Below, in pieces: positions 22,503 to 62,627 of a stretch of DNA of 64,000 nt; within the stretch, counting starts at the first letter, position 1, and every line of letters begins with the position of its first letter. The stretch covers positions 248,001 to 312,000 of the forward strand of contig JAANBB010000014.1 of NCBI GenBank assembly GCA_014621425.1. The letters are read 5' to 3'. Origin of the DNA: Cylindrodendrum hubeiense (lineage: Eukaryota > Ascomycota > Sordariomycetes > Hypocreales > Nectriaceae). Under the pieces are notes generated by a model. That model made no database searches, was not told where the DNA came from, and worked only from the letters and a program-made list of their open reading frames with translations. Made by a program: the position numbers and the translations under genes.

Positions 22503-25500
22503 TCAAGGCCCATAGTGAACATACGGGACCCAATGGGGTCGACTCGGCTCCGTTTCTTCCATTAGTTGTACAGCATGTCTCATGTGCTGCGAGTCGTGGA
22601 TATCACCTTCAACCCAGTCGTCTCGAAGCTGTCTCATGGCATGGTGGAGCCCGTCACTTATAGACTTGTCGTTTATCCCATTGTCTCGCAGAGACTCGTA
22701 CGTCAACCTCGCCATGAGTACACAGAGCTCATCACTGACCTCCCAAAGCGTACCTACTACATGTCGGAACCCTGCCAGCTGGAACGCACTCGTGAGGTGC
22801 ATGCTTTCATCAATTGACTCCCCACCTCGGATTTGGGCAGTTCCGCAGGCTGAAAGATAAGCAAGAAATTGCGAACGACGATTGAGATTTATGTTCAGCA
22901 TGGTTGCTACTGTTAATGGATCCTGCTTCCAATCCTCGAGGACCAAAATATTCTGCAGCGGGTTTTCCTCATTTGAGCGACTCGGTCCAGCAAAGTGGAA
23001 GACTGTACAGGCTTCTAAAGCTGTCAAGACTTCTTTCTTTCGGGGTGAAGGCCTGATACACGGTAGTGCCATTGATTGGCAAATAGCTTCCACCACGTCT
23101 GTCTCATCGCTCACATGTCGAAGCGAAGCATGTTCTGGACTGTCTGGCATGGAGACAAGGACGAAATTTTCGGAGGAGTCGAGTACCGTTTCTTGACCCC
23201 CACGTTGGCGACTGTGTATGATTCTCTTGATGGACAAACTATAGGACGAAATGACCCTGTCGAGAGCTGTGTTAGAGCTGCGCTCTAAATGGTGTCCAGC
23301 TGCGTGGAGAGGAAACCTAGCGAGTAGCCCCGTTGGAATCCACCAAATATGTGGCCAAGGCTCGCCGGATAGAGGCTCATGGAAGCCTAATGAATCAATC
23401 AAAGGACCGACGATGGTATCCCAAAGCCAATCAAGCGTCTCGAGAGATTCGAGCTCTTGGGCTCGGTTGTGGATATCTTTTTGAGAGAGATGAGGCAACT
23501 CCATCACTCGGATTTCAGATTGCTCGACGATTAACGCATCACATCGGTGCGAGCTCACGTTCAGTATAACGATCGGACCTTGTACTGCCGCTTCTCGCAT
23601 CTCGGCTTCTGATATAGACAGAAGAAATTGTTGGAACCCAGACTTGCGGCGGATTTCCTCGAGGAGGAGGGACATCCGGCTGCCAGCTTCGCGGCGCCGA
23701 CTAGGTTGTGCTTGAGGGGATATGGGAGTGCTCCTGGATGAGAAAAGAGCACCCTGCGACGTTCGGCCGTTAAGCTGGCCTCGAAGTTTGACAAATGAGT
23801 CCGCCAGCTCCGGATAATGTCTCTGTAAGGTGGAAAGATCGGTGCGTAGATCTTGAAGCGAACTCGCAAGAAGACCACGGCCGGTCTCGAGTAGTTCGAT
23901 CGCAGACACTGGGCCTTTACCAACCTTTAACGCGATGGCTGCCGCATCCGAGGCGAATCCAGCGGTTGGCGAGAGAATATTTTGCGTTTCTCTGTAATGC
24001 AGAGAAGACGGATCGCACAAAGGAACCAGTTCGACAGTTGTTTTCGCAACGGCAAATGCTTGATGATTATCCTCAAGAAAGGCCAAGGATGATAGAAATT
24101 CACGGCCAGCGGTAATGCGGATACTGATTGGAGACTCCTGGTGATCCAAGGCGACCATAAAGAGGCGTCTAGCGTCCTCGAGGTCCGCAATCGTCTCACT
24201 GTGTAAGAATCTATCGCGCAGTTGAACTCCAAGGTAGCATGACCATTTAGCCCAGTCCGGATGGTCTTCCGGAGTAGCTGAGATAGCTACCCGAGCTATG
24301 TCAATAGCCTTTTCAAGGTCTGCTATCGCCCCAGTGTGTGAGTACCTATCAGTTAGTAGAGTCCCAAGGGTATTCGCATATCTATTCCAGCCCGGATAAT
24401 TTTTTGGCGTAGTATCAACGGCCTCCTGGGCGATGTGGATTGCCTGATCAAGGTCCGCCATCGCCCCACCGCGGGAGTATTTATCGCCAAGTCGAACTGC
24501 AAGGTTACTAGACTCTTCCGCCTGGTCTGTGTGGTGATGTAGTGCAGCTGAGACAGCCTCCTGAGCCATGCGAATAGCCTCTTCGAGGTCCGCCATCTCC
24601 AAAGTGTGCGAGAATTTATCGCCCAGTCGAACTGAAATATTGTTTAGCCATTTAGCCCAGTCTGGATGGTCTTCCGATGTGAGTGAGACAGCCGCCTGAG
24701 TCATCCGAATAGCCTCTTCAAGGTCTGCTATTGACCCAGTGTGTAAGTATCTCTCATCGAGTAGAATCCCAAGGGTATTCGCATATTCAGCCCAGTCTGG
24801 ATAATCTTTTGGTGTACTATGAACAGCCTCTTGGGTTATGCCAATGGCCTCCTCAAGGTCCGCTATAGTTCCAGTGCGTGAGTATCTAGCACTAAGTCCA
24901 GCTGCAAGGTTACTCAAAAGTTTAGCCCGGTCTGGATAATTTTCAGGTGCGACTGAGACGGCCTCTCGGGCCGCGCCAATGGCCTCTTCGAGGACCCTGA
25001 GGCTTTCTGCCTGTGTTCTCATATATCTATCACCAAGTAGATCTCCAAGACTGGCTATTAAGACTCCCCTCAGGGTATCGTCTTTTGCAACGATCTCAAC
25101 AGCCTCCTGAGTGACATGAATAGCTTCGTCCAGGTCAACCTTATTCTCAGTCGCAGCGTATCGGTCTGCAAGCCGCGCTCCAAGGTCCTTCAGCAGAACC
25201 ACTCTGTTTGGATGGTCTTCAACAGTAGTCTTGAGAGAATCCCTCAGGCACAAAATTGATTCATCTAAGTCGGAGAGACTTTTCGTTCTGATATAACGCT
25301 CCCCTAGCCAAACTCCAAGGTCTGGTAATAGGAAGAGCCTGTCTGGGCTATCATCTGGAGTCATCTGGATCGCCTCTCGTACGACCTCGACTGCTTCTTC
25401 TAGGTACCTCTTCTCTTTTGCGATTAGATATCGGCCCCAAAGTCGATCTCCAAGGTCTTTTAATAGACGCGGCCTGTCCGGGTGGGAGTTTGCAATGGAC

Positions 25501-27428
25501 TGGATCGCCTGTCGCGCCTCCTCTATCCCTTCCTCTAGGTCCAGGGCGGCTGGGGCCTTTTTTTCTTCCGGTTCATCTGTCCAATCCTGGTAGGCGGAAC
25601 GATTTCCTTCCGATGTGGTAGGATTGGCGGAAAAGACGGCAGAAACACTATTTTGATCGTCGTCTTCTAGGTCATGGGGCAGGGAAATTAGTCGGACTAT
25701 CAGAAAAGTGAAAGTTCGCATGTGAGAGGCAACGTGCTTGGCCATGTATGTGGACTCTGATAAATCCACAGGGGGTATGTTTGCAGGGTTTCCATCTGAA
25801 CCTGGGGCCTCTTCAGGGATGTCGTTCAAAATACCAGCATAGTTCCCTGCAGGGTGAGGGATGCCAATAGAGATCTCGTTCGTCTTTTTGTCTGACATGA
25901 AATGCCCCTCTGCCTTGTCCGAACTAGGTTTTGTTTCCTCGCCGTTGTTGTCATCTCCGATCGCGAAACAGCAGAATGGACAAATATCCGCAGCTCGTTT
26001 GAGCAAGACGGTGCTTTGTTGGCTCATTGTCTGTACCTGGCGTGGTGTGAAATCTCTATGCGACTTTTGGAGGTGCTTAACGAATTTGCATTCAGTTGGG
26101 AAGCGAAGCGTTTCTGAATGGTCCGTTTCAATCTCAGGATCTATGTCACATATCCATGTTGGTTGTTTGTATATGATCTGAGACCACTCTGCCGAGTGAG
26201 CTTTCTTCATGTGTTTGAGCCACTCGGCAGATCCAGCAAAGCTAGGAACTTGGTCCAAGCTTGCACAGTCTTCAGAGATACAGACATATGGCTTCCAGTC
26301 TCTTTTTATGTGCTCTCTGAGGATCGTTAGAAAAGTTTCTAGTGTCCATGCAAGTTTGCGTTTCAAATAAACATACCTCCATTTTGATGGCGTGTTGAAC
26401 ATCTCGGCCGGGCGATTCTCAAGACACCAATCACAATTTGCATGTTTGTCACCCTCTGGAATAATCTGAGGGGGGAGGTAACTGGCAAGGCCAGTCTGAA
26501 TAGACGTGGTCAATCGGGAATAGTCTTCCAGAGCTGGAACCGCCAGATGCTGGTTTTTGTTGAACTCGGTCTCATCGAATGCTGATGACCTCACGGACGG
26601 TTGGATATAATTATTCGCATGGATTGGAGGTCGGTGACTTCCCGGGCGCCTCAAAGGAATTGCATCGATTCTGGGATCACCCGTCGCTGGTGTTGGCCGT
26701 CGTTTAGGATTGAATGACGGCCGATATTGCTTGCCGCGTTCTTTGCGGTACACAAATTCCTTATACTTGCTGGCCAATGACCTCGTCACATGTTCAAGAA
26801 GTTGGGAGTTGGCATTGGGGTACATGCTCTCCAAGACGGAATACGCAAGGATTTCAAAGGAGCTAACCCGGTCGTCATTGGCGAAGGCTTTGGTTCGGGA
26901 TATGAGCTGACCAGCTGACGCTTGGCGTATTGCGACTCCTAGCCGGTGAAGTCGATCAAGTGCATCCTCAACTCCGGTGAAGGCGGCCTTCAGGGCCGGT
27001 GAAAGACTAGCTTTGTTTTTCTCCTCACTTAAATGAATCAATGCACCACCATCCAAGGTCTGCTTCTCAATAACTTTGATAGCTTTGTTTGCCAGGCTGT
27101 CAGTTAGAGCCGAGTTTCGAACAGTTAAGTTGGAAAATATACCTGCATTTAAGTTTTTCCGGGTGACATGAAGTTGCTGCAACACCAGGCTTTTCACCTC
27201 GGGACTATTCCTCAGCCTGTGGTCAAGGCTGAGGATGTCGTCAGCACCCACGCCAATAAAGCCGATCCAAGCCTCGTATCTTTGCCAGTACTCATTCACT
27301 AGCCGCTGGGTGAGCGGAAAACCGCCATGAAGATGATCAAGCAGGTTGGAAAAGCTTTCCCAGCAATACTCTGCCGAGGTAGCGATACTAGGTTGATTCC
27401 GGTTCAAATCTTGCGTGTCTCGAGACAT
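22503..27428 (-). CDS. TPR-CHAT protein: zinc-finger, TPR array and caspase-like CHAT protease
   Basis: Single-exon protein of 1641 aa. N-terminal helical region (about 1-250); then zinc-finger-like motifs (CDWCLENRP; a Cys/His segment ending KHLQKSHRDFTPRQVQ; CPFCC with HVASHMRTFTFLIVRLISLP), as in fungal STAND-associated proteins. About 11 TPR-like units of roughly 43 aa follow (residues about 630-1100), each with a (D/Y)LEEAIxxxQEAV helix. The C-terminal CHAT domain has the caspase-type dyad: His1478 in FHFAGPS and Cys1528 in LSACGT, followed by the family pattern FQLAGFRHVVGTLW. CHAT proteases are relatives of separase and caspases; bacterial TPR-CHAT proteases cut gasdermins. It diverges from the DUF7580-S8 gene across a 461-bp shared promoter, with a gasdermin-like gene beyond. 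Both catalytic residues are present, so it looks active. The trigger is unknown. Confidence 0.88.
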   Translation of the reverse strand: MSRDTQDLNRNQPSIATSAEYCWESFSNLLDHLHGGFPLTQRLVNEYWQRYEAWIGFIGVGADDILSLDHRLRNSPEVKSLVLQQLHVTRKNLNAGIFSNLTVRNSALTDSLANKAIKVIEKQTLDGGALIHLSEEKNKASLSPALKAAFTGVEDALDRLHRLGVAIRQASAGQLISRTKAFANDDRVSSFEILAYSVLESMYPNANSQLLEHVTRSLASKYKEFVYRKERGKQYRPSFNPKRRPTPATGDPRIDAIPLRRPGSHRPPIHANNYIQPSVRSSAFDETEFNKNQHLAVPALEDYSRLTTSIQTGLASYLPPQIIPEGDKHANCDWCLENRPAEMFNTPSKWRYVYLKRKLAWTLETFLTILREHIKRDWKPYVCISEDCASLDQVPSFAGSAEWLKHMKKAHSAEWSQIIYKQPTWICDIDPEIETDHSETLRFPTECKFVKHLQKSHRDFTPRQVQTMSQQSTVLLKRAADICPFCCFAIGDDNNGEETKPSSDKAEGHFMSDKKTNEISIGIPHPAGNYAGILNDIPEEAPGSDGNPANIPPVDLSESTYMAKHVASHMRTFTFLIVRLISLPHDLEDDDQNSVSAVFSANPTTSEGNRSAYQDWTDEPEEKKAPAALDLEEGIEEARQAIQSIANSHPDRPRLLKDLGDRLWGRYLIAKEKRYLEEAVEVVREAIQMTPDDSPDRLFLLPDLGVWLGERYIRTKSLSDLDESILCLRDSLKTTVEDHPNRVVLLKDLGARLADRYAATENKVDLDEAIHVTQEAVEIVAKDDTLRGVLIASLGDLLGDRYMRTQAESLRVLEEAIGAAREAVSVAPENYPDRAKLLSNLAAGLSARYSRTGTIADLEEAIGITQEAVHSTPKDYPDWAEYANTLGILLDERYLHTGSIADLEEAIRMTQAAVSLTSEDHPDWAKWLNNISVRLGDKFSHTLEMADLEEAIRMAQEAVSAALHHHTDQAEESSNLAVRLGDKYSRGGAMADLDQAIHIAQEAVDTTPKNYPGWNRYANTLGTLLTDRYSHTGAIADLEKAIDIARVAISATPEDHPDWAKWSCYLGVQLRDRFLHSETIADLEDARRLFMVALDHQESPISIRITAGREFLSSLAFLEDNHQAFAVAKTTVELVPLCDPSSLHYRETQNILSPTAGFASDAAAIALKVGKGPVSAIELLETGRGLLASSLQDLRTDLSTLQRHYPELADSFVKLRGQLNGRTSQGALFSSRSTPISPQAQPSRRREAGSRMSLLLEEIRRKSGFQQFLLSISEAEMREAAVQGPIVILNVSSHRCDALIVEQSEIRVMELPHLSQKDIHNRAQELESLETLDWLWDTIVGPLIDSLGFHEPLSGEPWPHIWWIPTGLLARFPLHAAGHHLERSSNTALDRVISSYSLSIKRIIHSRQRGGQETVLDSSENFVLVSMPDSPEHASLRHVSDETDVVEAICQSMALPCIRPSPRKKEVLTALEACTVFHFAGPSRSNEENPLQNILVLEDWKQDPLTVATMLNINLNRRSQFLAYLSACGTAQIRGGESIDESMHLTSAFQLAGFRHVVGTLWEVSDELCVLMARLTYESLRDNGINDKSISDGLHHAMRQLRDDWVEGDIHDSQHMRHAVQLMEETEPSRPHWVPYVHYGP
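24150..25550 (-). repeat. TPR-encoding repeats (about 11 units of roughly 129 bp)
   Basis: Within the TPR-CHAT gene the words for DLEEAI...QEAV, and for the following DYPDWA...LGxxLxDRYxHTG helix, recur about every 43 codons. Similarity is visible in the DNA too (repeated CTTCRAGGTCYGC-like words on the plus strand). Units 6-10 are the most alike and mark recent expansion. Confidence 0.75.
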
Positions 27429-27889
27429 TTTGCCTTAGCCGCTAGGAATTGGCAGCGATCCCCGAAATTGGGATTCTTGCCCCGTAAAAGATATTTCTCG
27501 CAGAGTGTGTATTAAGAGTTAAAGAGTAGCTACTGAGAGGTAGTAAACTGTCATTTCAAGCTTGAATACCCCTTCAGAGTTCTTAAGTTTGGTGACTGAG
27601 TTCCCCTCACCCGGTGCCAAACGCCAGCCTCTCATGTGACCCTGGATAATCTACTCGTCTTACCTAATCAGCAGCATTTGACGTGTCATAAAATGGTTGG
27701 CGGGGTCTGGTCTGGTCTCCACATAGCGCAGCCTCGCATCACCATGATCGAGTCAACTTGGTGGTGAATGCAGCGCAGTCTCGGAGATAGCGTTGACCCC
27801 GTTATTGCTTTTCGCTCGCCCATCACAAACTGAAGCGCCAAAGACATCATCGAGCCCTGCTTCTTCCTCTCATATGGCATAGGTTCAAC
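27429..27889. promoter_or_regulatory. Shared divergent promoter of the TPR-CHAT and DUF7580-S8 genes
   Basis: 461 bp separate the two start codons, which point away from each other. No TATA box or repeated operator-like word stands out. The shared upstream region suggests co-expression of the two proteases. Confidence 0.5.
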
Positions 27890-30800
27890 ATGTCCTTGAA
27901 CGATATTTTAGAATGGCGCATAATCAGTGCGCTTCGTTCCTACCTAATATTGCCGCTAACTGTGACGGAAGAGGGGTTTGAAGATCTCGACGCGGATACC
28001 ATCTCACTTGAGAACGCGAGAGATGTCTTCCAGTACGAATTAACAAAAATCTTCATTTGGCCCGAGACGTCTCTTGATATCGGTATGCTTTCCATGTTTC
28101 AAGAACAATTAGTCAAAGTCGTCTCTTTGCTCGAAAATCTGGTAAACACGGACCATGAAAAGCTTTTGCTGCCAGAAAGAGAATTGAAGTTTCATCATAT
28201 CTTCAACAACAACACCACGTATAAAAAGCTTTGGGCACTGCTTGAATACCTAAACAGCTCTGGGGTGCGCTTTCACTTGATAAAAGGGCCTTCGGGTCCT
28301 GCTTTCAACTTGCCATCCGATGCGTCAGTCGCAGAGAACCTAGAAACTGTCCTGGATTTCAACCGCGTGGTAGATTCAGCGCCAGTCTCCCAGGAAAATA
28401 ATCCAAATCTGATCGTTGATCCAAAACCGACTACGTCTGTCGAATCCGAAGATGATTACATACGAAACTATGCGACTTCGGCCTTTGACACCGTCTTTAG
28501 CTACCTCGAGCAGTGCCAAACAGCACACAAGCTCATGCTATACCTTCCAAGGCAACATGGTGATACCGGCAGTCCTACATCCAAGGCCTTACTAGATTTG
28601 TTCATCTCTGTATGCGATGATGATCTTGCCTGGCAAGGGACCCAGTGTGGCGAATGCGAGTAAGTTGTATCTTGCCAAGGCCTGTTAACATACAGTTCTC
28701 ATTGTGACTGAACAACCTAGAAATCTTGAAGTGGGCCCTAGACTCATAAGAAATCGTGACCTCTGTAGCGTCATTACAGAGTCATATGCGGACAGAGAGG
28801 GTTTGCATATACACGTGATTGGGAATCAAATACAGAACCTCTCCCAGGCAACGCAGAAGATGCGGCATGGAGATAAATTCCCTCACACTTCTATCCACTC
28901 CTTACTGAATAGTGGAACCTTTGAACGTTTAAGGCGGGATAATATGGGATCTAATCGGTTCGACACTGGCGAAAAAAGGAATATTGTGACAAATATTGCA
29001 AACTCTTTCTCCCGTCTCCTGGGTTCCAGCTGGGTTGGTAAGGGATGGAGCGCCAAGGACATGTTCTTCATGGGTGACACAGAGGAAAAGAATAGATCTA
29101 ACAGACCATTTGGTCCGTTCATATCGTGTTCCGCAGATGGGCCCCCTCTTGAAGACCTGGCTAGATGGAAATCAAAGCTCAGAGCAAAACCTCCAACACT
29201 CCTCTTTCTCGGAAAGCTACTCCTGGAAATTGATCTCGGCTGGAGTTTGGATGATGATGTTGATAAAATACGCGAGGATCCACGGGAGAACATGTGGACG
29301 CTCCTGTCAAGCACCTTCGAAATGAACAAGGGCGATCTTCACTACGGTAATGCTATCGCAGCATGCCTCAAATTTCACAAGGAGCGGAAGATAAGATTTG
29401 AGATGGGAGAGATCACGGGGAACTTGGACGAGTGGTCTGAATGGGACAGAAGCTACGTTCGCGATCTCGTCAAAAGGCTCGAGGTTCCTGCGTACTCGCC
29501 GCAAAGCAAGCCCGAGGCTCTAAAGAAGTCTGCGAATGCTGGTTCGACCAAGGTTCTGCGACCATCACGATCCCCCTTTTCACGCAGATCTGGGAACCCT
29601 GCAGGCTTTTCCAATTGCCAAGCCACTGGGTCTCGACACACGGCTTCCGCCTTACCGACCGCCCTCGCGTCCCCGGCCCCTTTCAGCTCTAGCTGTACTA
29701 CAACAGTCAAATCAGGCTCTATTTCGTCGACACTTACGGCCACAACGACTGTAAAGCCAAAGAAAAGCCTGCCGGTACAAAAGCAAGAGGCTACTTCAGT
29801 GCCAATTAGCAGGAGATTGTCAATAATCTCAAATCTGCAGGTGTCGTCCTGGCTTGAAAGTACAGATACTTCAGTCCAGAAGCCAGCTGAGACAGACTCC
29901 AAGCCCTTGGATCCACGGCCAGAGGATCAAAATGAAAAAGAGGACCAAGAAGAAGTACACCGAGAGGAAGAGGACCAAGAGGAAGAAGATGTCGGAATGT
30001 TCTTTGACGAGGATGAGATGGAACATAGCCAACTGAGCGGGGAAGATGAGAAGTAAGAGTCTCAAGATACTGATCTTCATGCTTTTAATATACTAATCCC
30101 GTTACAGGCGAGCTCTGTGGGCTGAAACCTATTTTGAGGCGATGAAAAAGTTCTACAAGAAACATCCATTGCTTAGGTCTCTGACAGGGAGCCTCGAAAC
30201 TAGCACGCAGTCGGAGAGGAACCGGAACATAAAGATTGCTGTAATTGACACCGGAGTCGATGTTTCCGATTCTGATCCTCTCATATATGCCGAATCGGAA
30301 AAGGGAAGAATCACAGGCCGGGGTTGGGCTAACCCTGACGACCCCAGTGACTTTCACGACACCTGCGGCCACGGTACGCATCTTGTGCGGCTGATCCTCA
30401 AGGTCAACAAGACAGCCGATATCATAATGGCAAAAGTTTCAGAGGACAAGAGATTAACCCAAAAAAGTGCGGAGTACATAGCTGAGGTAAGATTCCTACT
30501 AGAAACAGCCCGTTCTTACCCAGCTTACCGATGTGATTCCAGGCCATTCGATGGGCAGTCGAGCAGAACGCAGACGTCATTTCTCTATCTTTGGGGTTCA
30601 AGAAACGAATAGGCATTATTGATAGTGCCCTTGAGACAGCCCTCAGCCCCCGTAAGGGTCGCCCTAGGCTTGTCTTCGCCGCGGCAGCCAATTGGGGCCT
30701 TAACTATGCCCTTGCATTCCCAGCCTCCAGGGAGGGTGTATTTTGTGTCCACGCCGTGAACGGGAAAGGCTTTGATGCAAAACTGTCTCCTAAACCAGAT

Positions 30801-31142
30801 TCCGACAGCAGAAGCCATGCAATAGGGACATTGGGAGTCGCCATCGAATCACAATGGGGCGGAAAGAGGCTGTGGCTAACAGGAACATCGTATGCCACGC
30901 CGATTGCTGCGGCCATGACTGCTAATATGCTGGTGTACGCACGACAGAACATGCAACAAGATGAGGACAGGTGGAGGTCGTTATCTTCATTCCCGATTAT
31001 GAAAGCAGCTATTGGTCTAATGTGCAGTAAAGGAGACAGTGACTCGTTCACTTATCTGGCACCTTGGCATATGGAAATGAACGCTCGTCTCGTCAACAAG
31101 ACGATCCTCGATGCTATCAGAGCCAGGATTGACTTCGGTTGA
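27890..31142 (+). CDS. DUF7580-type helical domain fused to subtilisin-like (S8) protease
   Basis: Four exons (27890-28659, 28721-30052, 30108-30486, 30543-31142), GT-AG introns of 55-61 bp, 1026 aa. Residues 1 to about 520 look like the fungal DUF7580 class: helical start, LFISVCDD, RLIRNRDLCS, PTLLFLGKLLLEIDLG, YGNAIAACLKF. A low-complexity Ser/Thr/Pro linker follows (about 545-660), then a Glu/Asp-rich run (about 675-710). The S8 domain has an intact triad: Asp748 in AVIDTGVD, His789 in CGHGTH, Ser943 in GTSYATP. No signal peptide or I9 propeptide is visible, so it is probably cytoplasmic, like other death-linked fungal S8 proteases. The gasdermin-like gene starts 468 bp downstream on the same strand. 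By analogy with HET-Q2/HET-Q1, its likely substrate is that protein (inference). Confidence 0.85.
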
Positions 31143-31610
31143 ACCGCAAAACAATACATTTGTGTATATTTGCTTTGTCAATACTAGCATATAACTTAGA
31201 GCTGGGCGCGTCTTGTAGCAGTGACATAATAGCTACCAGTATATACGGCTACAGACTGTGTTGACTTTGAAGGATCGGCAGTAGACCGGCACACTAACTG
31301 TACCTCGTTCTTTGCAAATTCAGTCTATCTCTCCGCTTGGATAAGCTTGATATCCTGCGTGGAGGGAGGCTTAGCTAATGAATAACAACAACACGCGGAG
31401 CCACCCACGTGCAGTATTCAGCTCACCCAATGCAAGTTGCTAAAACAATTTCCGTTCCAGCTAGCTCAACCAATAAAACGCTGCCACATATTGCCTCACT
31501 TGGGATACCCAAACAAGAATGCTTACTATGGCGCCCACCATCCAGGCTCTAGACATTCTGAGAGATTCACAATCGACAACTAGATTCTTTGGAAGAAATA
31601 GGCCGTTAGA
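31143..31610. other. Spacer between the S8 and gasdermin-like genes
   Basis: 468 bp with no ORF of note; it must hold the S8 terminator and the gasdermin-like promoter. An ACCAAT word at 31469-31474 (CCAAT type) lies about 137 bp before the ATG. Confidence 0.45.
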
Positions 31611-32435
31611 ATGTCTTCCAACAAAGCAACACATTCCTTCTTCATCATCCCAGATGTGAAGAAAAGCTACGACACGACAGTGAAACTCGGAAATGTAATC
31701 TATAGCGTCAAACGGCCTGACATGGTGCTCTTCCGGCCCGACAAGTCTACCCCGCTGCTACCACTTGGGGAACTACCGGCCCCGAGGACGATAAAGAATT
31801 ACAACATTGAGAAAGGTACTGTCAAGTCCTCCAAGTATGGCTTTTTTGCGAAAGTTCTCGAATTCTTCGGCATCGGCGCCAACTTTTCTCGCTCGGCCGG
31901 CACCGATGTCTCGGAACGCTACGAAATCAAAAGCGTGGCCTTCCACGCCTTCGAGCCGAGCTCCGAGTTTCTCGCCGGGCTACAAGCCCAGAAATCCATC
32001 ATGGACATACTCAAGGACGGCTCGGACCCGGTGGCATTCCTCATCGTGGGCATCGCTGTGGCGACTGGCGTCGTCTTTAAGTCCAGCGACATCAAAGACG
32101 GAGAGAACGAGGCCAGCCTTGGTATCAATGCCAGCGGGGTCTCGATCGGGCCCATGGGCAAGCGATCCAAGAATATGACGCTCAAGATTGACTGGGAAAT
32201 TGAGGACCCGACCGTGCTTGCCTTCAAGGTGCAGAAGCTACAGCTGAAAGACGATAAACTGGTGGCCACGGATGAGGAAGACGGCGCCTACTTCAGCGAC
32301 GACGATGAGCCAGTAAATTACGAAGTGGATTTTGATGCAGAGCTGAATGATAACGACCTGAGTGGACTGGAAGCTGAGAAGATCCAAGATGACTTCACTG
32401 GGGAGGAGTACAATCTCTACCTGCCAGCCGAGTAA
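31611..32435 (+). CDS. Gasdermin-like protein A (putative pore-forming cell-death effector)
   Basis: Single-exon protein of 274 aa without signal peptide. Features: FFIIP at 10-14, then LGNVIYSVKRPD (26-37); a FFAKVLEFFGIGANFSR segment (78-94); a hydrophobic stretch VAFLIVGIAVATGVVF (141-156) that could form a membrane-inserting hairpin; VLAFKVQKLQL (202-212); and a strongly acidic tail (about 220-266). It aligns by eye over its whole length with the protein at 55705, including LGN(I/V), the VGI/TGIxVA strand, and (F)AF(K/R)xxxx(L/I)x(L/I) before the acidic tail. Size, lack of secretion signal, C-terminal tail and position beside S8 and CHAT proteases match fungal gasdermins, which are released by proteolytic removal of a short C-terminal part. 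No cleavage site was identified. Family is not confirmed by search. Confidence 0.65.
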   Translation: MSSNKATHSFFIIPDVKKSYDTTVKLGNVIYSVKRPDMVLFRPDKSTPLLPLGELPAPRTIKNYNIEKGTVKSSKYGFFAKVLEFFGIGANFSRSAGTDVSERYEIKSVAFHAFEPSSEFLAGLQAQKSIMDILKDGSDPVAFLIVGIAVATGVVFKSSDIKDGENEASLGINASGVSIGPMGKRSKNMTLKIDWEIEDPTVLAFKVQKLQLKDDKLVATDEEDGAYFSDDDEPVNYEVDFDAELNDNDLSGLEAEKIQDDFTGEEYNLYLPAE

Positions 32436-32960: not shown

Positions 32961-35900
32961 ACTTTGCAAGCAATTGCAGGTAGCTACGACGTATAGCAGC
33001 TGCCCCACTGAGATCTTAGGTCCCTTATCGCAGCAGCGCACCGACTGCGATTGAGGCCGTATTTGAAGACCCTACGCGCTGTAATGAAGCTCGGTACAGC
33101 TAGGTCCCGCAAGTCACGATGTCTGACCCTGCGGATAAGGGTGGCCTTGATCCTGTTAAGAGAAGCCTCCCGCCCTAAGACGAAGCCGCTTATAGTGATA
33201 ACGAGCCCTCCAAGCCGAGCCTGGAGGACTATGATGATGAGGTGCCTGAGGACCTGATCTAATAGACTGTGAGGGCAGCGATGGAGGCGTGGAAGGCCCA
33301 GTAAAGGAAGAAACCTGTGGCCCAGCCTCCAGTCTCTCTAAGGTAGTTATTCTCATATACCCTAGCTGGGCTCTTTATGAAGCTGCCCACGGGGCACATG
33401 ATGTACGCCCAAGCTGGCCTGCCCACAAGGTAGCCTGATTATCACATATAAAGATCCCTTAAGACCCCGAGCCCTAGATTAATACCATCTGTAGCCACGG
33501 TAATTAAGATAAGGGAAACCCTGTGTTTCTTACGGTAATAAGACATAATAATGGCCTCGATCTTCGAGAGCCTGCTATAATAGGGCTTGATGGACCTGAC
33601 CCCCATAGAGATCAAGGAAGCCCGGGATCTACACTTCTTCAAATTACGGATACCCGAGACTATGAAGCTTAAAGGACCAGAATAGTGGTGAAGCTGGAAG
33701 CAGATCCTTAATAGTGCCCTAGCCATCGCCGGCGTATACAATCAGATCTAACTATCTAGAAAGGGTGAGGGAAAGCTATTAACAGAGATCACTGCTAATA
33801 CTACTAGAGATACTTTTAAAGTTATCACTGGACTATTCCAAGGTATAAGGGCTTACATAACGCTGATCTAGTGATATGAGGTCTTGATAGGCTTTACAGA
33901 GAATACCCTATAGATTAAGCTCATGACACTAAGGCTTAAGGACTTAAAGAGTATACTAATCTATATTAATAAGTTCAGAAAGCTAGCCTGGCTATATTAT
34001 AGTGCAGGTAGTAATATTATAATAAGAACTGAATTTAATATCTTTATAATTAATATAGGTATTATAGTGGAAGATTAAACTAATTGAATATTCATAAAGA
34101 TAAGAGATAGTTATCTCAATAACCTGACCTTAATAGAGATTTAAAATAATCTTAGTACTTATATAGAGAGATATATACACAAAATCGAGATTATCTAGGA
34201 TAGTAACTATAATAGTAATTAAGATAGTGATCGTGAAAGATCTAGTATAATAATAATAGTATAGTTATAGTGGTTAAAAGACCTATTATATATTACCTAT
34301 TATAATTATAGTAAGAAGGGCTATATCTTAAGGGAATATTAATCTAAGAAGAAGATCTAGCTTAAAGATAAGGGTACTATTAACCTTAAGATAAGGGAGT
34401 CCATATAGGCATATACTGTCTTAAAGGAAGCCCCTGAGGTCATAGATACCCTAGGAAGTAATAGCTTTACCTGTTAAGCTAGTGAGGCCAGCCTCACTAA
34501 GATAAGAGGGATCTACAAATAATTCCTAGCTAGTAAGAAAGGCCCCGAGGCCCTTACAGTTACTAACTATAGCAAGCCTAATAAGGGTATTTAGGTTAAA
34601 TATAGAGAGCCTAGTAAGGTCCTAGTAGGTTATACCTTTATTTTATAATTATATATAATAAAGACTATAATCCCTAGTAAAAGAGATTAATAGCTATAGG
34701 ACTTTAAAAATAATCTTTATATTATTAATAATACTAAATAGTTTTATAATAATAACTAGATAGAGATAAAGGAATTAATTATAATTATAATAGGTGCCGG
34801 GCCTATATATTTAATAGCTATTAGGACAGCTCTTATAATACTATATAGAAAGGGAAAAGAGATTATTATAATATCCCTCTAAGATATAGTCTATATACCC
34901 TTATTCCTACTAAATATCTTTTCTAGTAAAAAGATATATCTCTCCAATAGCTATCTTAGCCAGAATTATATTATAAATAAAGAAGACCTTATTATCAGTA
35001 TAATTAATATCTATAAGTATAGCTTCCTCCTATAGGTTATAGGAGGTATTATTAAATAATAAGGCCTATAGAAATAGGTAATATTCATATACCAAAAAGT
35101 GTGAAATACAATATTATAGCACTAATAACTAGATTATAACAGTCTTAAGAACATTAATAAGATTCTTAAAGTAATTCACAGAGAAATAAAGCTAATAATA
35201 GTTATTAGGAATAACTGTGATATTTATAAGCTTATAAAGACTATTAGATATAGCTTAAAGGCCCTGACCTTATAGGCATAATAAGTCCTAGACCTTTTCT
35301 ATATTAACTTCTATAAGATTAAGCTTATTATATATAATAAAAAGAAATATATACTATTAATAATAAATAATAAAAACCACTTTTATATTATCTACTTACT
35401 CAGAACTAAAGGTAAGGCCTATATAATACTTATTATAATGTATAACTAGTTCAAGACCTAATATAGTAAGTTAAAGGATATCTAGATTAATAGAGATAAG
35501 GAACTTTAGAATATAGCTCTCAGAGCTTATATAAGACTATAAGGTATAATAATTGTAATTATATTACTCTATAGGTATAAGTAAAATAGTACTATTAAAC
35601 ACACCTACTATATTATCCTTGATAAAGCTTATATAATAATAATAGCCCAGGATATCCCTCTTAAACTATGGGGGGAGATTATAACTATTATAGTTAATAT
35701 TATAAATCTAATAGCCGTAAAAGGCTTAGGTTAGAAGACTCTATTAGAGGTCTTTAATAATAATATTAAAGGAATAGCTAAAGATAATAATAGTTACCTA
35801 AACTAGCTAAGTATTAAATACCTATAAGTCCTAGGATATAAGATAGTTATTATAATTAAACTAGAAAAATAGATAAAGATAATAAAATTATAGTCCTATA

Positions 35901-37841
35901 GATTTAAGGGTATCCTTATTAATTTTAAAGGAAGATATCTATATTATATTTAGGACCTGAATATAAGGCAGGTCTATATTACCTTATATACTATATTCTT
36001 TGAGAACCTACTAATATCACTTAGCCATAAAATAGTAAGATTAAGGCCCCCTAGAATAATTAGGTAAATCTAAGTAATAGAATTTGAAATAAAGTTAGTG
36101 AGAGTAATAGATCGGGCTATAAGTATAGTTATAACCTTATATTAAGATCTTAACCTGAAAATTATATATAAAACCCTCGAGCTCCCTAATAAAACAACCT
36201 AGAGAGAATTAACCTATCTAGAGATAAAGGTATTATTAGATAAGAGTATTATTAACTTTCTACCTTATATTATAATACTAACAGGAAGGTATCTCTTAAT
36301 AATAAAATAAGTATTAAAATATAAGTATAATAAGTATAATAAGATAATAAGATATAAATTAAAACTTATAATTTAAGATTTCTAGTAATATAAAGATATT
36401 AATTATAATAAGACTTTCTTATCTATAATAAGACTAGCCTCTTAGTATATTATTCTAGCCTATATAGTTTAATATAGCTATAAACTTATACAGATAGATA
36501 TTATAGCTACCTATCTTAATAAAGATCTTAAAGAAGATATTTATATAGAGCTATTCCCACTACTTAATAATTTCCTCTATAACTCTTAATATAAGTACTA
36601 TATTAAGGAATAAGATTATAGAGATAACTGTATTATCTAGCTTGGCCAGGCCCTTTATAATCTCAAATAAAGTAGCTAATAATGGTAGAAGAAGCTTAAA
36701 GACAAGCTCACTAAATTAGGCTTTAAACAGCTAAAGTTAGATACTATAATCTACCTAGATCCAGAATAAGGGATTATTATAACTTCCTATATAAATAACC
36801 TAATTATAATTATAGTAGATAAAGGTATAGAAGAATATTATTATAAGCAGCTAGACTCTAACCTTAATATTAAAAGACTAGGCTTTTCGCGCTTCTTCCT
36901 AGGTATTATAATTATAATTACTAACAACAGTAATATTACCCTCACATAGACTAACTATATAAGGGATATCCTCAAGATATTCTAGATAACTAATTATAAG
37001 ATAGCTTTAATCTTAATAGACCTAAGTACTTACCCAGAGATAAAAAAGAATATTAAGTTAAGTTTATAAGGATTAAAAGAGATATATATAACTTTTATAA
37101 AAAAGCTTAATTATCTAGTTATATAGATAAGACTAGATATTATCTTCCTAATAGGACTATAGGTATACTTTATAATTAAGCTTAGTGAAATCCACTATAA
37201 GTTAGTAAGGTATATCCTACATTATCTTAAAGAGAACTTGTCCTAAGGTATTTACTATTATAAGTAATTATAAGAGACCTACAATAACCTCTACAAGCTC
37301 CACAAATATAGTGATTCTGACTATATTACTGATCTTAATATCTCATAATCTATAGTTAGATATATCTTTATAATAAATAGGGCCCTGATCTTATGGGCTA
37401 ATAAGAGATAACTAATAGTTATGAAATTAATCACAAAGGCTAAATATTATAGGATATCAGTTACAATATCAGAGACAGTGTAGATCAGGAGCTTCATGGC
37501 CAAGCTAGATATCCTATTAACCTTACTATTAATAATCTTCGCAGATAACCAGAGTTCTATCAAGCTAGCTTATAACCCTAAGTACTACACTTATATGAAG
37601 TATATTATTATATATTACCATTATATATAAGAGGTTATTATTAACAGAGATATTAAGATATAATATATTAATACCGACAAAATAACTACTAATAGGCTTA
37701 TAAAGCCACTAGTTAAGAAAAAATACAAGGAATTTATTAGCCTTATAGGTATAACTTCCTAGGAGGCCAGAAATACTAGAGATAGAGAGATTGAGACTGA
37801 ATTAACTGTAATCAGAATACCCTATCAGGTATACTAGACTT

Positions 37842-37850
37842 AGGGGGGAG
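37842..37850 (+). other. Polypurine tract
   Basis: AGGGGGGAG lies directly before the 3' LTR, the expected site of plus-strand priming. It confirms the element's orientation. Confidence 0.85.
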
Positions 37851-38040
37851 TATTACGGGCTATAAGGTCATGTAGGGGACCCATGAAGTATCAAGTCCGA
37901 TGCCGGACTATCAGATGGGGCCAGTTAGGGCTGATAAGAATGCTACCACTGTATTTAGCTGTGCGGATACTGCTAGCAGCTTGAATTAACCACTGATACA
38001 TCTCTCTGAGTCCAGACCTATTGTGACGACCCCCGTAACA
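37851..38040 (+). repeat. 3' LTR (190 bp)
   Basis: Starts TATTACGGG (TG now TA) and ends CCCCGTAACA. Relative to the 5' LTR, 16 of 17 differences are C-to-T or G-to-A in this copy and one goes the other way. Confidence 0.95.
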
Positions 38041-50404: not shown

Positions 50405-53400
50405 ATGGCCTTCGAATTCGACGGCACGGAGTTTCTCGGCGTGGCAAAACTTGCCCAGGGGCTCCAATATGAGTTCAGAGGAGCTCCAAGTCACCTCAAG
50501 AAGCTTTCCGACGAGTAAGTTACAGAAAGCACCAACTACAGTATGCTCAGCTCTAACTGCGTTTCGTACAGAGTGGGCCTACTCGACCACGCATTGCAGG
50601 GTGTCGAAGCTACTTTTCGCCAGTTTGAGCTAAATGAAAAGCAGAGATATGACTTCCAAAACGCCGTGCGTAGTTGCCACAAAGACCTTCAAGGTGTTGA
50701 GTTAGTCTTGGAAGACTACACACCATTAACCCCACATCATGGAAATCATAGATTGTGGAATTCGACATGGGGGTGGCCCAAACTTAGTCGAGAGGATGTG
50801 CACGAGCTAGTGGACCAGGTCGCTGCCAGTACCGTGATGCTCAACACACTCATCACGGAGGTTTCCAGGTTAGTTGATCGCTGCTTTTTATTTTGCATCA
50901 CATATAGCATCATAGATATGGTACGAGATAGGAAGAGGTTTGCTTTCTTGACAGACTCTAATTAAGATGCAGTAGCAGTCCAGCCCTGGACCTCACACCT
51001 GACCAGTATGACCCGTCGCGCCGTCAACCCAGTCAAGATCGACACACAATTATGGACTGGATAAGCCCGCTTGACTACGTATCCGAACACAGTGATAAAG
51101 CCAGAAGAATCTATCATGGTACCGGTCATGAACTTCTGGATTCGGAGAAATTCGCAACGTGGACGGCGGACGAGGGCCGAACACTCTTCTGCCCGGGCAT
51201 CCCTGGCGCCGGAAAGACAATGGTTTCCGCCATCGTAATCGAAGAACTGAAGAATCGCTTCCGGAACGACCCCAGCGTCTCCATTGCGCATATTTACTGC
51301 AATTATAAGCGCGAAGACTCTCAAACTATCCAGCACCTCCTTGAGAGCTTACTCCGGCAACTTGTCAGCAACCTTGCAACAATCCCCGAAAACATTCGGT
51401 CTATGTACAACACGAACTTCCATGGGAAAATTCGACCACGATTCGATGAGCTCATCCAAAGTCTCCACGAGGCGGCGGCAATGTACTCAAGAGTATTTAT
51501 CATCATTGACGCGTTGGACGAATGTCCAAATAACCCCGGAAACGAGTGTAAAGAGCACGCTGGAGACCGGACAAGATTACTGGCGGAGATATTCCAACTC
51601 CAATCTGATTGCTTAGTGAATTTCTTCGCAACCTCGAGACCCATGCCGGATATTATGGATAAATTCGTACAATATCCATCATTGGAGATCCGGGCCAATG
51701 AGCAAGACGTGCGGATATACCTGGACGCTCACATGGCAGAACTGCCTGATTTTGTTACTCAGAGTCCAGACCTACAAGACCAAATAAAGAACAATATATT
51801 ATTGGCTACGGACGGCAGGTAGGTCGGCCTAAAACAATCACGAATTCTTTAGCTAACATGTCCAGATTTCTTCTTGCTGAATTTCACCTCAAATCTCTCG
51901 CGAACGAGCAAAGTCCCGAGTCTCTTCTCCAAGCTCTCGAAAATCTTCCAACAAATTTCGGAACATATAATAGTGTGTACGAAGATTTGATGAGAAACGT
52001 AGAAGCACAGAGCATGGATCGATCAAACCTCGCTATTAATGCTTTACATTGGACGGCCTACGCACAACGGCCATTAACGATAACAGAACTTCAGCATGCT
52101 CTGGCTGTTGAAGTCGGTATGTCTGAAATCGACCAAAACAGCCTGACAGCAGTGAAAGATATTGTTTCGGTATGTTGCGGGCTTGTCATGGTAGATGAGA
52201 AGAGCGGAATTATTCGCCTAGTCAGCCATACAACGCAGGAATATTTTGATCAGCTTCCGTGGTTCAGATTTCGAGACGCTCATATCTACATCGCCAGAGT
52301 CTGCGCAATTTATCTCTCATTCAAAGTGTTTCAAGGTGGCAAGTGCTATCCGAGCCAGCTTCAGGAAAGGTTCCAGACCAATCCCCTGTTTGAGTATTCA
52401 TCGAATTACTGGGTGGAGCATGCGCGTCGGGGTGATCACATGAGTGAAGACAAGGTCATCAAAAGCTTCATGCAATCTGCCAAAGCCATGGAAGCTTCGT
52501 GTCAAGGATTTTCTGCATCCCTCCATAATCAATCTCGCTTCATGTTTCGGTTTCCCGAAAACCTCACGCCGCTCCACGCAGCCGCATGTTCATGTCTGTC
52601 CTCCGACTCTTACTTCCGCACGACCCGGATGGAAGTAAATGTCCGGGACGCACTCAACAGGACACCATTGTTTTATGCTGCCCTTGGCGGGAATAATACT
52701 TGTCTTGAGCATCTTCTCAGGACGCAAGGAGATACTGAAATCGTGGATAAAGCGGGTCAAACGCCGATGCATGTTGCTATCAACCATGGCTCTTTGAGTA
52801 CTTTGGAGATGCTACTCGACCATGGCTATGGACATATCAACCGCAAAGATAATATAGGATCAACACCTTTGACCTTAGCTGCCATTCAAGGCCATGAACG
52901 GGCAATTAGACTACTCCTTGGAATCCAGGCAGAAACGTGGGACTCACCATGCCTATTAGAGCCCTCAAGCTTGGCATGGGCTGGCAAAAACGGCCATGAC
53001 GAAGTTGTCAAGCTGGTCCTTGAGGCCTCAAAGGTGCATGCCAACTCCAAGGATGGCTCTGGGACAACGCCCCTAGCAGTCGCTGCGAGATTTGGGCATG
53101 TAGAGGTCGTCGAGTTCTTTATCCAGGCTAACCGAGTGGATGCCAACTCGAAAGACAACTGCGTGTCAAATTGCTTGGCTCTGGCGGCCAGGCACGGCCA
53201 TGATCAGGTCGTCAAACTACTTCTTGGTCTTCCTGGAGTGCGTTCCAACTCCAAAGACCGCCATGGAAGCACACCACTATCTCTAGCTGCAAAAGGCGGC
53301 CATGAAAAAGTTGTCAAGTTGCTCCTGGAGTCGAATAGCCGTCATGTTAACTCGAGAGATAAACATGGCATGTCGTCTTTGTCTCTCGCTGCTATGGGTG

Positions 53401-55704: not shown

Positions 55705-56571
55705 ATGAGTTCTCGAGTAAAACATTATTTTCTAGCGCCGATTGGAAATCCTGCCGAAGGGCCAATCCGACTCGGTAACATCGTCTCGGCCCCACGACTC
55801 GCAGATGACCCTCTCAACGAGGATCATGTCCCATTGAGCTCTGTGTCTATGGACGTTGTTGATCACACCGAGCACAGCTACGACTTCGGGATAAATATCA
55901 ACAATGGCAGCCGCGTCGGTGTATGGGCATCATTCTTGCAGACTTTGGGCCTGGGCGGGGACGTCACCGTCGAAGGTTCCAACGAGAACAGCGAGCAATG
56001 GGCGTGTGAGAGCATGCGGACAATCTCATTCACACCAAAGCTGGACTACATAACTAAATGCTTGGAGGATGAAGGTGTGCAGAACTACATGCGAGTCAAC
56101 AAGCCCTGGTTTGGCACCTCGAGGTTATACATGGTCACTGGCATCAAAGTCGCATACGGAGCTTCCTCTACAGTCCGCTACGCCCAGAGTAGAGGGTTTC
56201 ACCTCCGATTTGGCGTCGACCTTACTGGCCTAGGGATCCCGCTAACTATTGGGCCCGAATTTGGCCGCACCAACACGCTTTCTGTCCGGCAGTCGCAAGA
56301 AGGTGCCGAGCCATTTGTGTTCGCTTTTCGCTTGCGCCGCATCAAGATAACTGGGAAGGGGAATATTCACCATGAACAATACGACAAAGGAACAGTCCTC
56401 GGTATTAAGGAAGATGAAGTTGACGAATCGGATGTCAAGTTCGAGGTTATCGTTGAAGGAGTTGAGGACGATGACGCGGATGGATCCGAATTCCAACTGG
56501 ACAGTAATGATGCTGTGGATGAGGCATCACCAGTTGGTATCGAATGCACGTGCGCTGCCTCGGAAGATTAA
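55705..56571 (+). CDS. Gasdermin-like protein B (putative pore-forming cell-death effector)
   Basis: Single-exon protein of 288 aa, no signal peptide. It matches protein A (31611) along its length: YFLAPIG then IRLGNIVSAP (21-30); a glycine-rich segment with VWASFLQTLGLGGDV (73-87); MRTISFTP (104-111); LYMVTGIKVAYGA (141-153); FHLRFGVDLTGLGIPLTIGP (165-184); FVFAFRLRRIKI (204-215); and an acidic tail (about 235-274). The last 15 residues contain two cysteines (ECTC). An alternation of polar and hydrophobic residues in 165-215 suits long amphipathic beta strands, as used in gasdermin pores. An S8 protease gene lies 3.6 kb downstream in the same direction, with an AAA ATPase gene convergent in between. 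The gasdermin assignment is inference from this similarity and context. Confidence 0.62.
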   Translation: MSSRVKHYFLAPIGNPAEGPIRLGNIVSAPRLADDPLNEDHVPLSSVSMDVVDHTEHSYDFGININNGSRVGVWASFLQTLGLGGDVTVEGSNENSEQWACESMRTISFTPKLDYITKCLEDEGVQNYMRVNKPWFGTSRLYMVTGIKVAYGASSTVRYAQSRGFHLRFGVDLTGLGIPLTIGPEFGRTNTLSVRQSQEGAEPFVFAFRLRRIKITGKGNIHHEQYDKGTVLGIKEDEVDESDVKFEVIVEGVEDDDADGSEFQLDSNDAVDEASPVGIECTCAASED

Positions 56572-60125: not shown

Positions 60126-62627
60126 ATGCGCTCCGAAGACAATCATGATCGAGCCATGGACCATTCACATCAGCTCCTACTAGATGAAATTGAACGACAA
60201 TTATGCGACCAGGGAACTTCGAAACCCCAAGCCAAAAACCACCCCACTGTCCAAACTCACAAGGACATCAACAATCAGAATTATCGGGACAAGCTTCGCT
60301 GCCTTCGTTCCAGTATCAACAGTAGGTAAACCTGTTGGCAAAGGACAGTTAGGACAGGTCAAATTGGAGATCTGACGACACATTTAGGTTGTTTCGGGTC
60401 GGGAGGGGCGCAAAATGGACGTCTTGACCTGCTTGATGAGCCTCTGATGTGGCAGCTCCCAGCGCTTTGTGGTAATGGCGCAGTTGTTGACCAAATCCTT
60501 TCGAAAACTCGCAACAAAGCGCTTCAGGAACAGCGTGCTAGAACTCAAAGTAATACGGAGGACATTTGGAGCAGGGAGGAATTAGCAGAATGGCTGTCAA
60601 ACCCCGAATCATCCGTATTGACAGTCCAGGGCACGTCCCAGACCTTGGAGCGATTGGAGAAGTTCAGCGTCCAGCTGGTTGATCATATCTCAAAGACTCA
60701 TCCTGTTGTTTACCTTCTAAATCCCCTGCCCATCACTATTTATGAGTCATCGCCTTGCAGAGGAGACTACTTCTTGCGTCAGCTGGCTGTCCAGTGCCTA
60801 CAGATCTTACCCACAGGAAACGTCCCGAACTTGTTGGACTTCCTCGCCGATATGACCAGTCAGTTTCAACCTGAATCATGCAATGACTGGTTTTCAACAA
60901 TGGAAGCAATACTGTCGCATCAGAGCGATGTCTTCATAGTTGTCAACGCGGAAATCCTCCGTCGTCATATCGAAGACGCTTGTCTCTGGCGAGCCGGTTT
61001 CATGAGGCTGGCACAGCGATTGGGGGAGGGCACCCTACTAAAAGTCATGATCCTTACAGGTCGCCAAATCAACGAAAAGCTCGGTACTACAACAAGTGCA
61101 ATGGTCATTGATAGGAATCCGATAGCTTTATCGCATTTACATGCTCCACCTCTACAACGGGTCTATCCAGCTAGATCTTCTCGAAAGTTCTTGGACTCTA
61201 ACGAGAGTGGTGAAGACAAAGGGTACGTAGTGGAATTTTTATCGTCGCTGCGAGAATGCGCCATGACTGAGGGTGCCCCCGAAATCAGAATGCTGTCAGA
61301 CCGCAGTGACTGTCCTAGTGACGTGAAGCCTTTGCAACAACAAGTGCTAGACGCAGGCGGATTTTCAACTTTCCATCAAGGCATAACAATCGATAGCGAT
61401 AGATCCGAACATGCGGAGAGTGATGACAACAAAGCCATGCGGCCTCCGAAATGTGGAATTGAAACTTCAGTGGAGGAGAGACAAGACAAAGACCTGGGGT
61501 CATTTCAGTCAGCGAGTTTGAGATCATCGTACGTAACCCAATCCGAGGCCGCTTTTATGATTATCTTCCCATTTCTAAGAATATATAGAGAAGAATCCGC
61601 CACCCTCTGGTTCAAAAACTTGGCATCCATGACGCATGAGGTCATGTATAACTATGAAGGATATAATCCGAGTTCACATAAGCCGGTCAAAGTTGCCGTG
61701 CTTGATACCGGGTTCTCGTATACCGACGCTAAGGATAAGAAGTCCTTGAAACCATACGCCCAACGTATTAAGAAATTTGCAAACTTTATTGAGGGTGAGA
61801 GCGACGCCGAGGCCTACACAGACCCTTCTGGTCATGGCACAGCGGTAGTCGTGCAGATACTTAAAGTCAGCCTTAGCGTGGTGCTATACGTTTGCCGAGT
61901 CGTACGACCAGGCGCAAATGACTTAATCCCTGATAAGTCGGCTGTGGAAAGGGCTATCAGAAAGGCCGCGGAGAAACCGAACAAGCTAAAGCCTGATGGC
62001 GGTGGCTGGGGCGTTGACATCATCAATATGTCGTTTGGATGGCCGTATGACGACCATGATGGTGTTCGAGACGCCATTCAGTTTGCACGCGTTAACGGAG
62101 TGCATATGTTTGCATCGACTTCCAACCACGGCCTACTTGGTCCTCCGAACGATATCCTGTATCCTTCTCGTTCAGGGGACGTCATTGCAGTGGACGCAGC
62201 TGACGGCCTCGGCGAACACGCAAAGACCACAGCATCGTTGCTGTCCCCTCACGGCAGAGAAAGAAGATTCAGTGCACCGGGTTTGAGACTAGTAGCCCCG
62301 AACTCGACAGCCACATGGTCGGGTTCGTCGTTTGCGTGTCCGATTGCTGCGGGAATTGGCGCATTAATTCTCGAGTTTGCAAGGCAGCCTCCTCTGGACA
62401 AAAGCCCAACTGTGCAAAAGCACCTTGAGAAGATGGCCGCAATGATTGCTATACTACGGCGAATGAGTGAAAAGAAGGGACCTGAGCAGTCGAAATTTCT
62501 TATGCCCTGGAAACTCATTGGTAGTATGTATGAGCGACGAGGGAGAGCGAGAGAGTTTACCTCCCTTAGCATCATACAAGAGTTAGCAAAGGAATATGGG
62601 CCGACAGTCGGCGCGGAGGTTTTCTGA
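60126..62627 (+). CDS. Subtilisin-like (S8) protease with a degenerate P-loop NTPase-like N-terminal part
   Basis: Two exons (60126-60321, 60388-62627), 811 aa. The 66-bp intron (donor GTAGGT, acceptor TTTAG) removes an in-frame TAA; a start at 60184 using the GTAAAC donor four bases on is an alternative. Residues about 130-330 resemble a decayed NACHT/AAA unit: SVLTVQGTSQTLERL in the Walker A place without GK, DVFIVVNAEIL in the Walker B place, and LKVMILTGRQI like the sensor strand. The S8 domain (about 500-745) has an intact triad: Asp505 in AVLDTGFS, His548 in SGHGTA, Ser713 in SGSSFACP. No signal or propeptide is visible, so it is probably cytoplasmic. Closest genes are the AAA ATPase and gasdermin-like B, its possible substrate (inference from HET-Q2/HET-Q1). 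Confidence 0.82.

What the first reader, a model, noticed from the sequence alone, without database searches (positions are those of the whole stretch)
22503..32435. Gasdermin-like gene clustered with both a CHAT protease and an S8 protease
Three genes in 10 kb: a TPR-CHAT protein with its His/Cys dyad, a DUF7580-S8 protein with an intact Asp/His/Ser triad, and a 274-aa gasdermin-like protein with a hydrophobic hairpin and acidic tail. Established: fungal gasdermins are activated by cleavage (HET-Q1 by the subtilisin HET-Q2), and fungal gasdermin genes are often next to S8 or CHAT protease genes. Both protease classes at one locus suggests two inputs to one pore, or a cascade in which one protease activates the other. 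The cascade is inference.
Basis: partly seen in the sequence, partly recalled or inferred. Interest (0 to 1): 0.93.

Follow-up and report, generated by a model that had tools for sequence, protein, structure and literature searches.

The report
Fungal gasdermin–subtilase pair beside inactive-looking CHAT
[quoted passage not shown] the second cutting enzyme beside it, which made the locus look unusual, has lost a key active-site residue and is probably just a neighbour.

Summary
The three genes are real, but one key detail is wrong. The 274-aa protein (31611-32435) is a fungal gasdermin: its family profile finds HET-Q1 in the PDB at E 4.3e-5. It lies 468 bp from a DUF7580-S8 gene with Asp, His and Ser in place. 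In this genome 8 of 9 gasdermin loci have an S8 hit within 5.2 kb. This is the known S8-gasdermin cell-death module.

The CHAT claim fails. The His of the HFAGHG motif, present in 119 of 119 aligned homologs, is Pro1482 here; the Cys is kept. The protein looks like a pseudoprotease.

The CHAT neighbour is unsupported. Only 1 of 9 gasdermin loci has a CHAT within 10 kb, and chance gives that in 9-21% of trials. The apparent synteny in Cylindrodendrum hubeiense is this same assembly.

The likely S8 cut is after F228, by analogy with HET-Q1 F238. A second, RCD-1-like gasdermin with its own S8 lies about 24 kb away.

The parts
31611..32435 (+). Gasdermin, HET-Q1-like, 274 aa, single exon; hydrophobic stretch about 140-157; acidic C-terminal tail 229-274
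   Evidence: Profile vs PDB: HET-Q1 9uv9 E 4.3e-5, RCD-1-2 E 0.065; Foldseek ranks 1-14 all gasdermins, best E 1.2e-3, on a low-confidence model, pLDDT 51.8; 18 homologs, 46-73% identity
32292..32294 (+). Codon of F228, predicted S8 cut site (P1), in a stretch with consensus GAYFGDDDEP; inference
   Evidence: F228 invariant in A1; leaves a 46-aa, 5.26-kDa acidic fragment; HET-Q1 is cut at F238 of 278 aa (passages of PMC10989679)
27890..31142 (+). DUF7580-S8 subtilase gene, 1026 aa; exons 27890-28659, 28721-30052, 30108-30486, 30543-31142
   Evidence: GT-AG splice search; Pfam DUF7580 and Peptidase_S8 on the pieces; Asp748, His789, Asn877, Ser943 aligned in 9 of 9 rows, one being the window's own model
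22503..27428 (-). TPR-CHAT gene, 1641 aa, single exon; probable pseudoprotease
   Evidence: Pfam CHAT E 4.1e-29; caspase-like fold in the model, Csx29/Craspase top; catalytic His missing
22983..22985 (-). Codon 1482 (CCG, Pro) where the CHAT catalytic His is expected
   Evidence: His in 119 of 119 aligned homologs; the homolog P0035 His at this column aligns to Csx29 H615
22845..22847 (-). Codon 1528, the retained CHAT Cys
   Evidence: Cys in 119 of 119 aligned homologs
27429..27889 (.). 461-bp divergent intergenic region between the CHAT and S8 start codons
   Evidence: Coordinates
55714..56571 (+). Second, RCD-1-like gasdermin in the same window, 285 aa
   Evidence: RCD-1-2 8jyz_B E 2e-12; hhalign with the first gasdermin's family: probability 97.6
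60330..62627 (+). Second S8 subtilase ORF (765 aa stop to stop), 3.8 kb from the second gasdermin
   Evidence: Peptidase_S8 E 3.5e-18; Asp, His and Ser motifs seen by eye in the sequence

Best explanation
The working unit is a two-gene, pyroptosis-like cell-death module: gasdermin 31611-32435 and its DUF7580-S8 sensor-protease 27890-31142. Inferred mechanism: the DUF7580 part senses or relays a non-self or damage cue and frees the S8 domain. S8 cuts the gasdermin after F228 and removes the acidic 46-residue inhibitory tail. The rest oligomerises into a plasma-membrane pore and kills the cell or heterokaryon. The divergent TPR-CHAT gene does not work as a second protease by the usual dyad; it is most likely a chance, lineage-specific neighbour on a CHAT-rich contig. 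Shown by computation: homology, gene order, S8 catalytic residues present, CHAT His missing. Inferred: cleavage, the cut site, the pore, sensing and the biological role.
For: HET-Q1 is the best PDB sequence match; gasdermins lead the fold searches. The S8 residues are conserved in the aligned homologs. Seven contigs, recognised by identical length, carry both a gasdermin and an S8 homolog, with adjacent or two-apart locus tags in four. In this genome 8 of 9 gasdermin loci have an S8 hit within 5.2 kb, and beside 7 of these 8 S8 hits lies a DUF7580 hit on the same strand. F228 is invariant and gives a 5.26-kDa fragment, like HET-Q1 F238 and about 5 kDa (passages). CHAT: Pro1482 against His in 119 of 119; a chance neighbour is not unlikely.
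Against: No experiment was run. The gasdermin model is weak (pLDDT 51.8), and no Foldseek match reached E 0.001. The cut site is an analogy. The CHAT ORF is still open over 1641 codons and keeps its Cys and overall fold, and its start codon is only 461 bp from that of the S8 gene, so some non-proteolytic role remains possible. The CHAT synteny test is weak: only the best 120 of 871 CHAT homologs were listed, and one of them, P0094 (RB599_003723), is from another strain of Gaeumannomyces hyphopodioides with a locus number near that species' gasdermin-S8 pair (RB595_003680/003681); whether they are neighbours could not be checked. Two of the 9 S8-list rows that are not the window's own share no contig with a listed gasdermin (P0026, P0028).
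Confidence: 0.75

Rival explanations
1. The CHAT protein is a maintained pseudoprotease that takes part in the module: its TPR array senses a cue, and its dead CHAT domain binds and holds the gasdermin or the S8 protein (decoy, scaffold or brake).
For: Open 1641-codon frame, retained Cys and caspase-like fold without the catalytic His; divergent start codons 461 bp apart. Of 22 invariant CHAT columns only the His differs.
Against: No contig with a listed gasdermin homolog appears in the CHAT list (list cut at 120 of 871). The domain departs at 6 of 66 strongly conserved columns, more than 118 of 119 homologs do, which suggests relaxed constraint (the columns were chosen on the homologs, which leans against the window). 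Chance proximity 9-21%.
Confidence: 0.14
2. One reading: an active CHAT and an active S8 give two inputs to one gasdermin, or a cascade.
For: A TPR-CHAT from Podospora anserina activates its neighbouring gasdermin (review passage, PMC12881547); about 17-19% of fungal gasdermins are near CHAT genes (review passages).
Against: Catalytic His replaced by Pro; only 1 of 9 gasdermin loci in the genome has a CHAT within 10 kb.
Confidence: 0.05
3. The CHAT gene is a recently inactivated former activator of this gasdermin, lost after the S8 took over, or half of a switched allorecognition locus.
For: Three of the six departures from strongly conserved columns fall in or just after the His motif (P1482, S1483, N1493); a broken CHAT copy elsewhere also lacks this His (L040). 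A review describes pseudogenisation at such loci (passages of PMC10197012).
Against: S8-gasdermin pairing is shared with other orders whose contigs do not show in the CHAT list, so S8 is probably the older partner.
Confidence: 0.06

Closest known systems
het-Q1/het-Q2 of Podospora anserina
   Same: Gasdermin of 274 vs 278 aa; S8 partner; Phe at the start of an about 5-kDa C-terminal tail (passages).
   Different: HET-Q2 is a 388-aa S8 protein and het-Q1/het-Q2 are idiomorphs (passages); here a 1026-aa DUF7580-S8 gene and the gasdermin lie side by side in one genome.
Q2-like S8/fungal gasdermin two-gene clusters (Clave et al. 2022, known here only through reviews)
   Same: Gasdermin next to a multidomain S8 gene; about 63% of fungal gasdermins are said to be so placed (passages of PMC10197012).
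   Different: N-terminal module is DUF7580; no paper in the library uses that name. Whether the 2022 survey already counts such proteins was not seen.
TPR-CHAT/gasdermin two-gene clusters (P. anserina; CHAT with gasdermins also in bacteria; review passages)
   Same: TPR-CHAT gene near a gasdermin.
   Different: CHAT catalytic His replaced by Pro, and an S8 gene lies between CHAT and gasdermin.
RCD-1 of Neurospora crassa
   Same: Gasdermin fold; closest solved relative of the second gasdermin in the window.
   Different: RCD-1 works by two allelic variants, not cleavage (review passage).

Membership tests
Fungal gasdermin (HET-Q1/RCD-1 family) | Sequence homology to HET-Q1/RCD-1 over the pore-forming part | tested here: met
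   Profile A1 vs PDB: 9uv9 E 4.3e-5; hhalign to an RCD-1-like gasdermin: probability 97.6
Fungal gasdermin (HET-Q1/RCD-1 family) | Gasdermin N-terminal fold | tested here: met
Fungal gasdermin (HET-Q1/RCD-1 family) | Membrane targeting, oligomerisation, killing | not testable with these tools
   Needs expression assays
Protease-controlled (Q2-like) gasdermin cluster | Gasdermin gene next to an S8 gene with catalytic residues present | tested here: met
   468 bp apart; residues aligned; 7 shared contigs elsewhere
Protease-controlled (Q2-like) gasdermin cluster | Cleavage removes a short C-terminal tail | not testable with these tools
   Only the site analogy F228/F238
Active CHAT protease | CHAT domain and caspase-like fold | tested here: met
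   Pfam E 4.1e-29; Foldseek top Csx29 E 7.8e-7, model pLDDT 68 with the Cys region below 50
Active CHAT protease | Catalytic His of the HG motif | tested here: not met
   Pro1482; His in 119 of 119. Homolog P0035 aligns this His to Csx29 H615 and, by range, to Craspase 585; dyad H585/C627 from passages of PMC9729208. The window's own alignment to Csx29 agrees but is not significant (6.4 bits)
Active CHAT protease | Catalytic Cys | tested here: met
   Cys1528
Dual-protease (CHAT + S8) gasdermin locus | Conserved three-gene order in independent genomes | tested here: inconclusive
   0 of 18 gasdermin rows has a contig length that appears in the CHAT list, but only 120 of 871 were shown; P0094 from another Gaeumannomyces strain is unresolved; the C. 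hubeiense hit is this same assembly

The most novel reading that the evidence does not exclude
A fungal gasdermin module with a built-in pseudocaspase: a TPR-CHAT protein that has lost its catalytic His but kept fold and Cys regulates the S8-gasdermin pair without cutting, as decoy, scaffold or brake. This would parallel inactive caspase relatives that regulate active caspases in animals (that parallel is recalled, not from a call).
Probability: 0.12. Interest if true: 0.65.

Novelty: new member of a known kind. Interest (0 to 1): 0.36.

Why it matters
It adds a well-supported example of the S8-gasdermin cell-death module with a DUF7580 sensor, and shows that in this genome DUF7580-S8 is the usual gasdermin partner (7 of 9 loci). 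It also warns that genomic nearness of a CHAT gene does not prove a second activator: catalytic residues should be checked before CHAT and S8 are counted as partners. If the inactive CHAT proved to have a role, it would be a pseudoprotease regulator in fungal immunity.

Tried and rejected
Rejected: CHAT with an intact dyad. Rejected: C. hubeiense as independent proof of CHAT-S8 synteny. Its genes G7Z17_g1657/g1658 lie on a 352006-base contig, exactly the length of the window's contig C46, and another of its CHAT proteins has a contig length (72775) equal to contig C97; the window is that assembly. Rejected: a gene fusion of S8 and gasdermin as annotated in g1658 (P0019); the DNA has a stop at 31140-31142 and a separate ATG at 31611, and relatives list two proteins. 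Considered: a base error behind Pro1482; at least three changes are needed.

Full report
What is there. On the minus strand, 27428-22503 is one open frame of 1641 codons with TPR repeats and a C-terminal CHAT domain. On the plus strand, 27890-31142 is a four-exon gene (GT-AG introns 28660-28720, 30053-30107, 30487-30542) for a 1026-aa protein with DUF7580 and Peptidase_S8 domains. At 31611-32435 is an intronless 274-codon gene. The window lies on contig C46 of a 47.5-Mb assembly. C46 is 352006 bases long, the same as the contig that carries the Cylindrodendrum hubeiense proteins G7Z17_g1657 and g1658. Those proteins, compared by eye, match the window nearly letter for letter apart from splice differences, so this is C. 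hubeiense (Nectriaceae). In that public annotation S8 and gasdermin are fused into one model and the CHAT domain is missing from the other.

The S8 partner. Asp748, His789, Asn877 and Ser943 stand where the homologs have them (9 of 9 aligned rows, one of them the window's own model). Comparing the two protein lists, 7 contigs recognised by identical length carry both a gasdermin homolog and an S8 homolog: 6887148, 124427, 143313, 24258, 353181, 122886 and 198947 bases. Locus tags are consecutive in Gaeumannomyces (RB595_003680/003681) and Chaetomidium (32425/32424), and two apart in Conoideocrella and Xylaria arbuscula; in X. flabelliformis and X. digitata the tag numbers are far apart, and X. 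curta's S8 row shows none, so only the shared contig is known. That is 7 of the 9 gasdermin homologs with a species name; P0010 and P0014 found no S8 mate in the list. Of the 9 S8 rows that are not the window's own, 7 are matched; P0026 and P0028 are not. In this genome, 9 gasdermin loci match at E 1e-6 or better with one or other of the two window gasdermins (the window's two included); 8 of 9 have an S8 hit within 5.2 kb, and 7 of these S8 hits have a DUF7580 hit beside them on the same strand. The exception is C379. Two weaker matches (C268, E 0.02; C223, with stops) were left out. Random placement gave at most 3 of 9 in 20,000 trials.

Probable cut site. In all 19 aligned sequences a Phe (F228) sits just before the acidic tail, in a stretch with consensus GAYFGDDDEP. 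The piece after it has 46 residues, 5.26 kDa and net charge -16. Review passages state that HET-Q1 (278 aa) is cut by the S8 protease HET-Q2 at F238, losing 40 residues or about 5 kDa. The match is an analogy, not a test.

The CHAT protein. The protein has HFAGPS at 1478-1483 and SAC at 1526-1528. Among the 120 best homologs (of 871), 119 aligned over the domain. At column 1482 all 119 have His, at 1483 116 have Gly, at 1528 all have Cys; the window has Pro, Ser and Cys. H1478 is conserved too (119 of 119), but in the alignment of homolog P0035 with Csx29 that His stands against Leu, whereas the His of column 1482 stands against Csx29 H615. By the reported alignment range, P0035 His853 also falls on Craspase residue 585, and the paper's passages name H585/C627 as the dyad. 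The window's own alignment to Csx29 puts Pro1482 on H615, but at 6.4 bits it is not significant. The model of the domain (pLDDT 68, Cys region below 50) has Csx29 and Craspase as best matches. So the fold and Cys are kept and the His is gone. The domain departs at 6 of 66 strongly conserved columns; only 1 of 119 homologs departs at as many or more. Of the other CHAT genes, 15 of 16 with a located motif keep the His (20 of 24 fetched, 4 not located); the exception is a copy with stop codons.

Is the CHAT neighbour meaningful? The genome has 25 CHAT hits, four on C46. Only the focal one is within 10 kb of a detected gasdermin. Chance gives at least one such case among 9 gasdermins in 8.6% of trials, and 21% for this gasdermin given four CHATs on C46. 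None of the 18 gasdermin rows has a contig length that appears in the CHAT list, though that list was cut at 120 of 871. One case is open: the CHAT protein RB599_003723 (P0094) is from another strain of Gaeumannomyces hyphopodioides and has a number close to that species' gasdermin-S8 pair, but numbers of two strains cannot be equated. Reviews describe S8 and CHAT as alternative partners (about 60-63% and 17-19%, passages); in the passages I saw, no locus with both is described. Library searches.

Verdict. An ordinary and well-supported S8-gasdermin module, a new member of a known kind, next to a TPR-CHAT gene that is probably not an active protease and may be a bystander. The two-input or cascade idea is unlikely (about 0.05). 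A regulatory role of a dead CHAT is the boldest reading left (about 0.12-0.14).

Noticed in passing
window 55714-56571, 60330-62627, 50962-54365: A second, RCD-1-like gasdermin lies about 24 kb from the first, with its own S8 ORF 3.8 kb downstream and NACHT/NPHP3_N-ankyrin (NLR-like) ORFs upstream.
   Followed up: partly
contig C46 of the window's assembly (352006 bases): Four of 25 genome CHAT hits and two of 9 gasdermins sit on this one contig; Poisson P for at least 4 CHATs is 4e-5, post hoc.
   Followed up: partly
window 27890-32435: The public model G7Z17_g1658 fuses the S8 gene and the gasdermin into one 1044-aa protein, and g1657 lacks the CHAT domain, so annotation-based surveys could miss both.
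   Followed up: yes
contigs C390, C52, C319, C534, C791, C157 of the assembly: Six further neighbourhoods with DUF7580, S8 and gasdermin hits; another DUF7580-S8 pair on C601 has no detected gasdermin.
   Followed up: partly
window about 34000-38000: AT-rich block (26-28% GC against about 48-50% on either side), possibly a decayed repeat.
   Followed up: no
contig C379:161764-162291 of the assembly: A gasdermin match with no S8 or CHAT hit within 10 kb.
   Followed up: no
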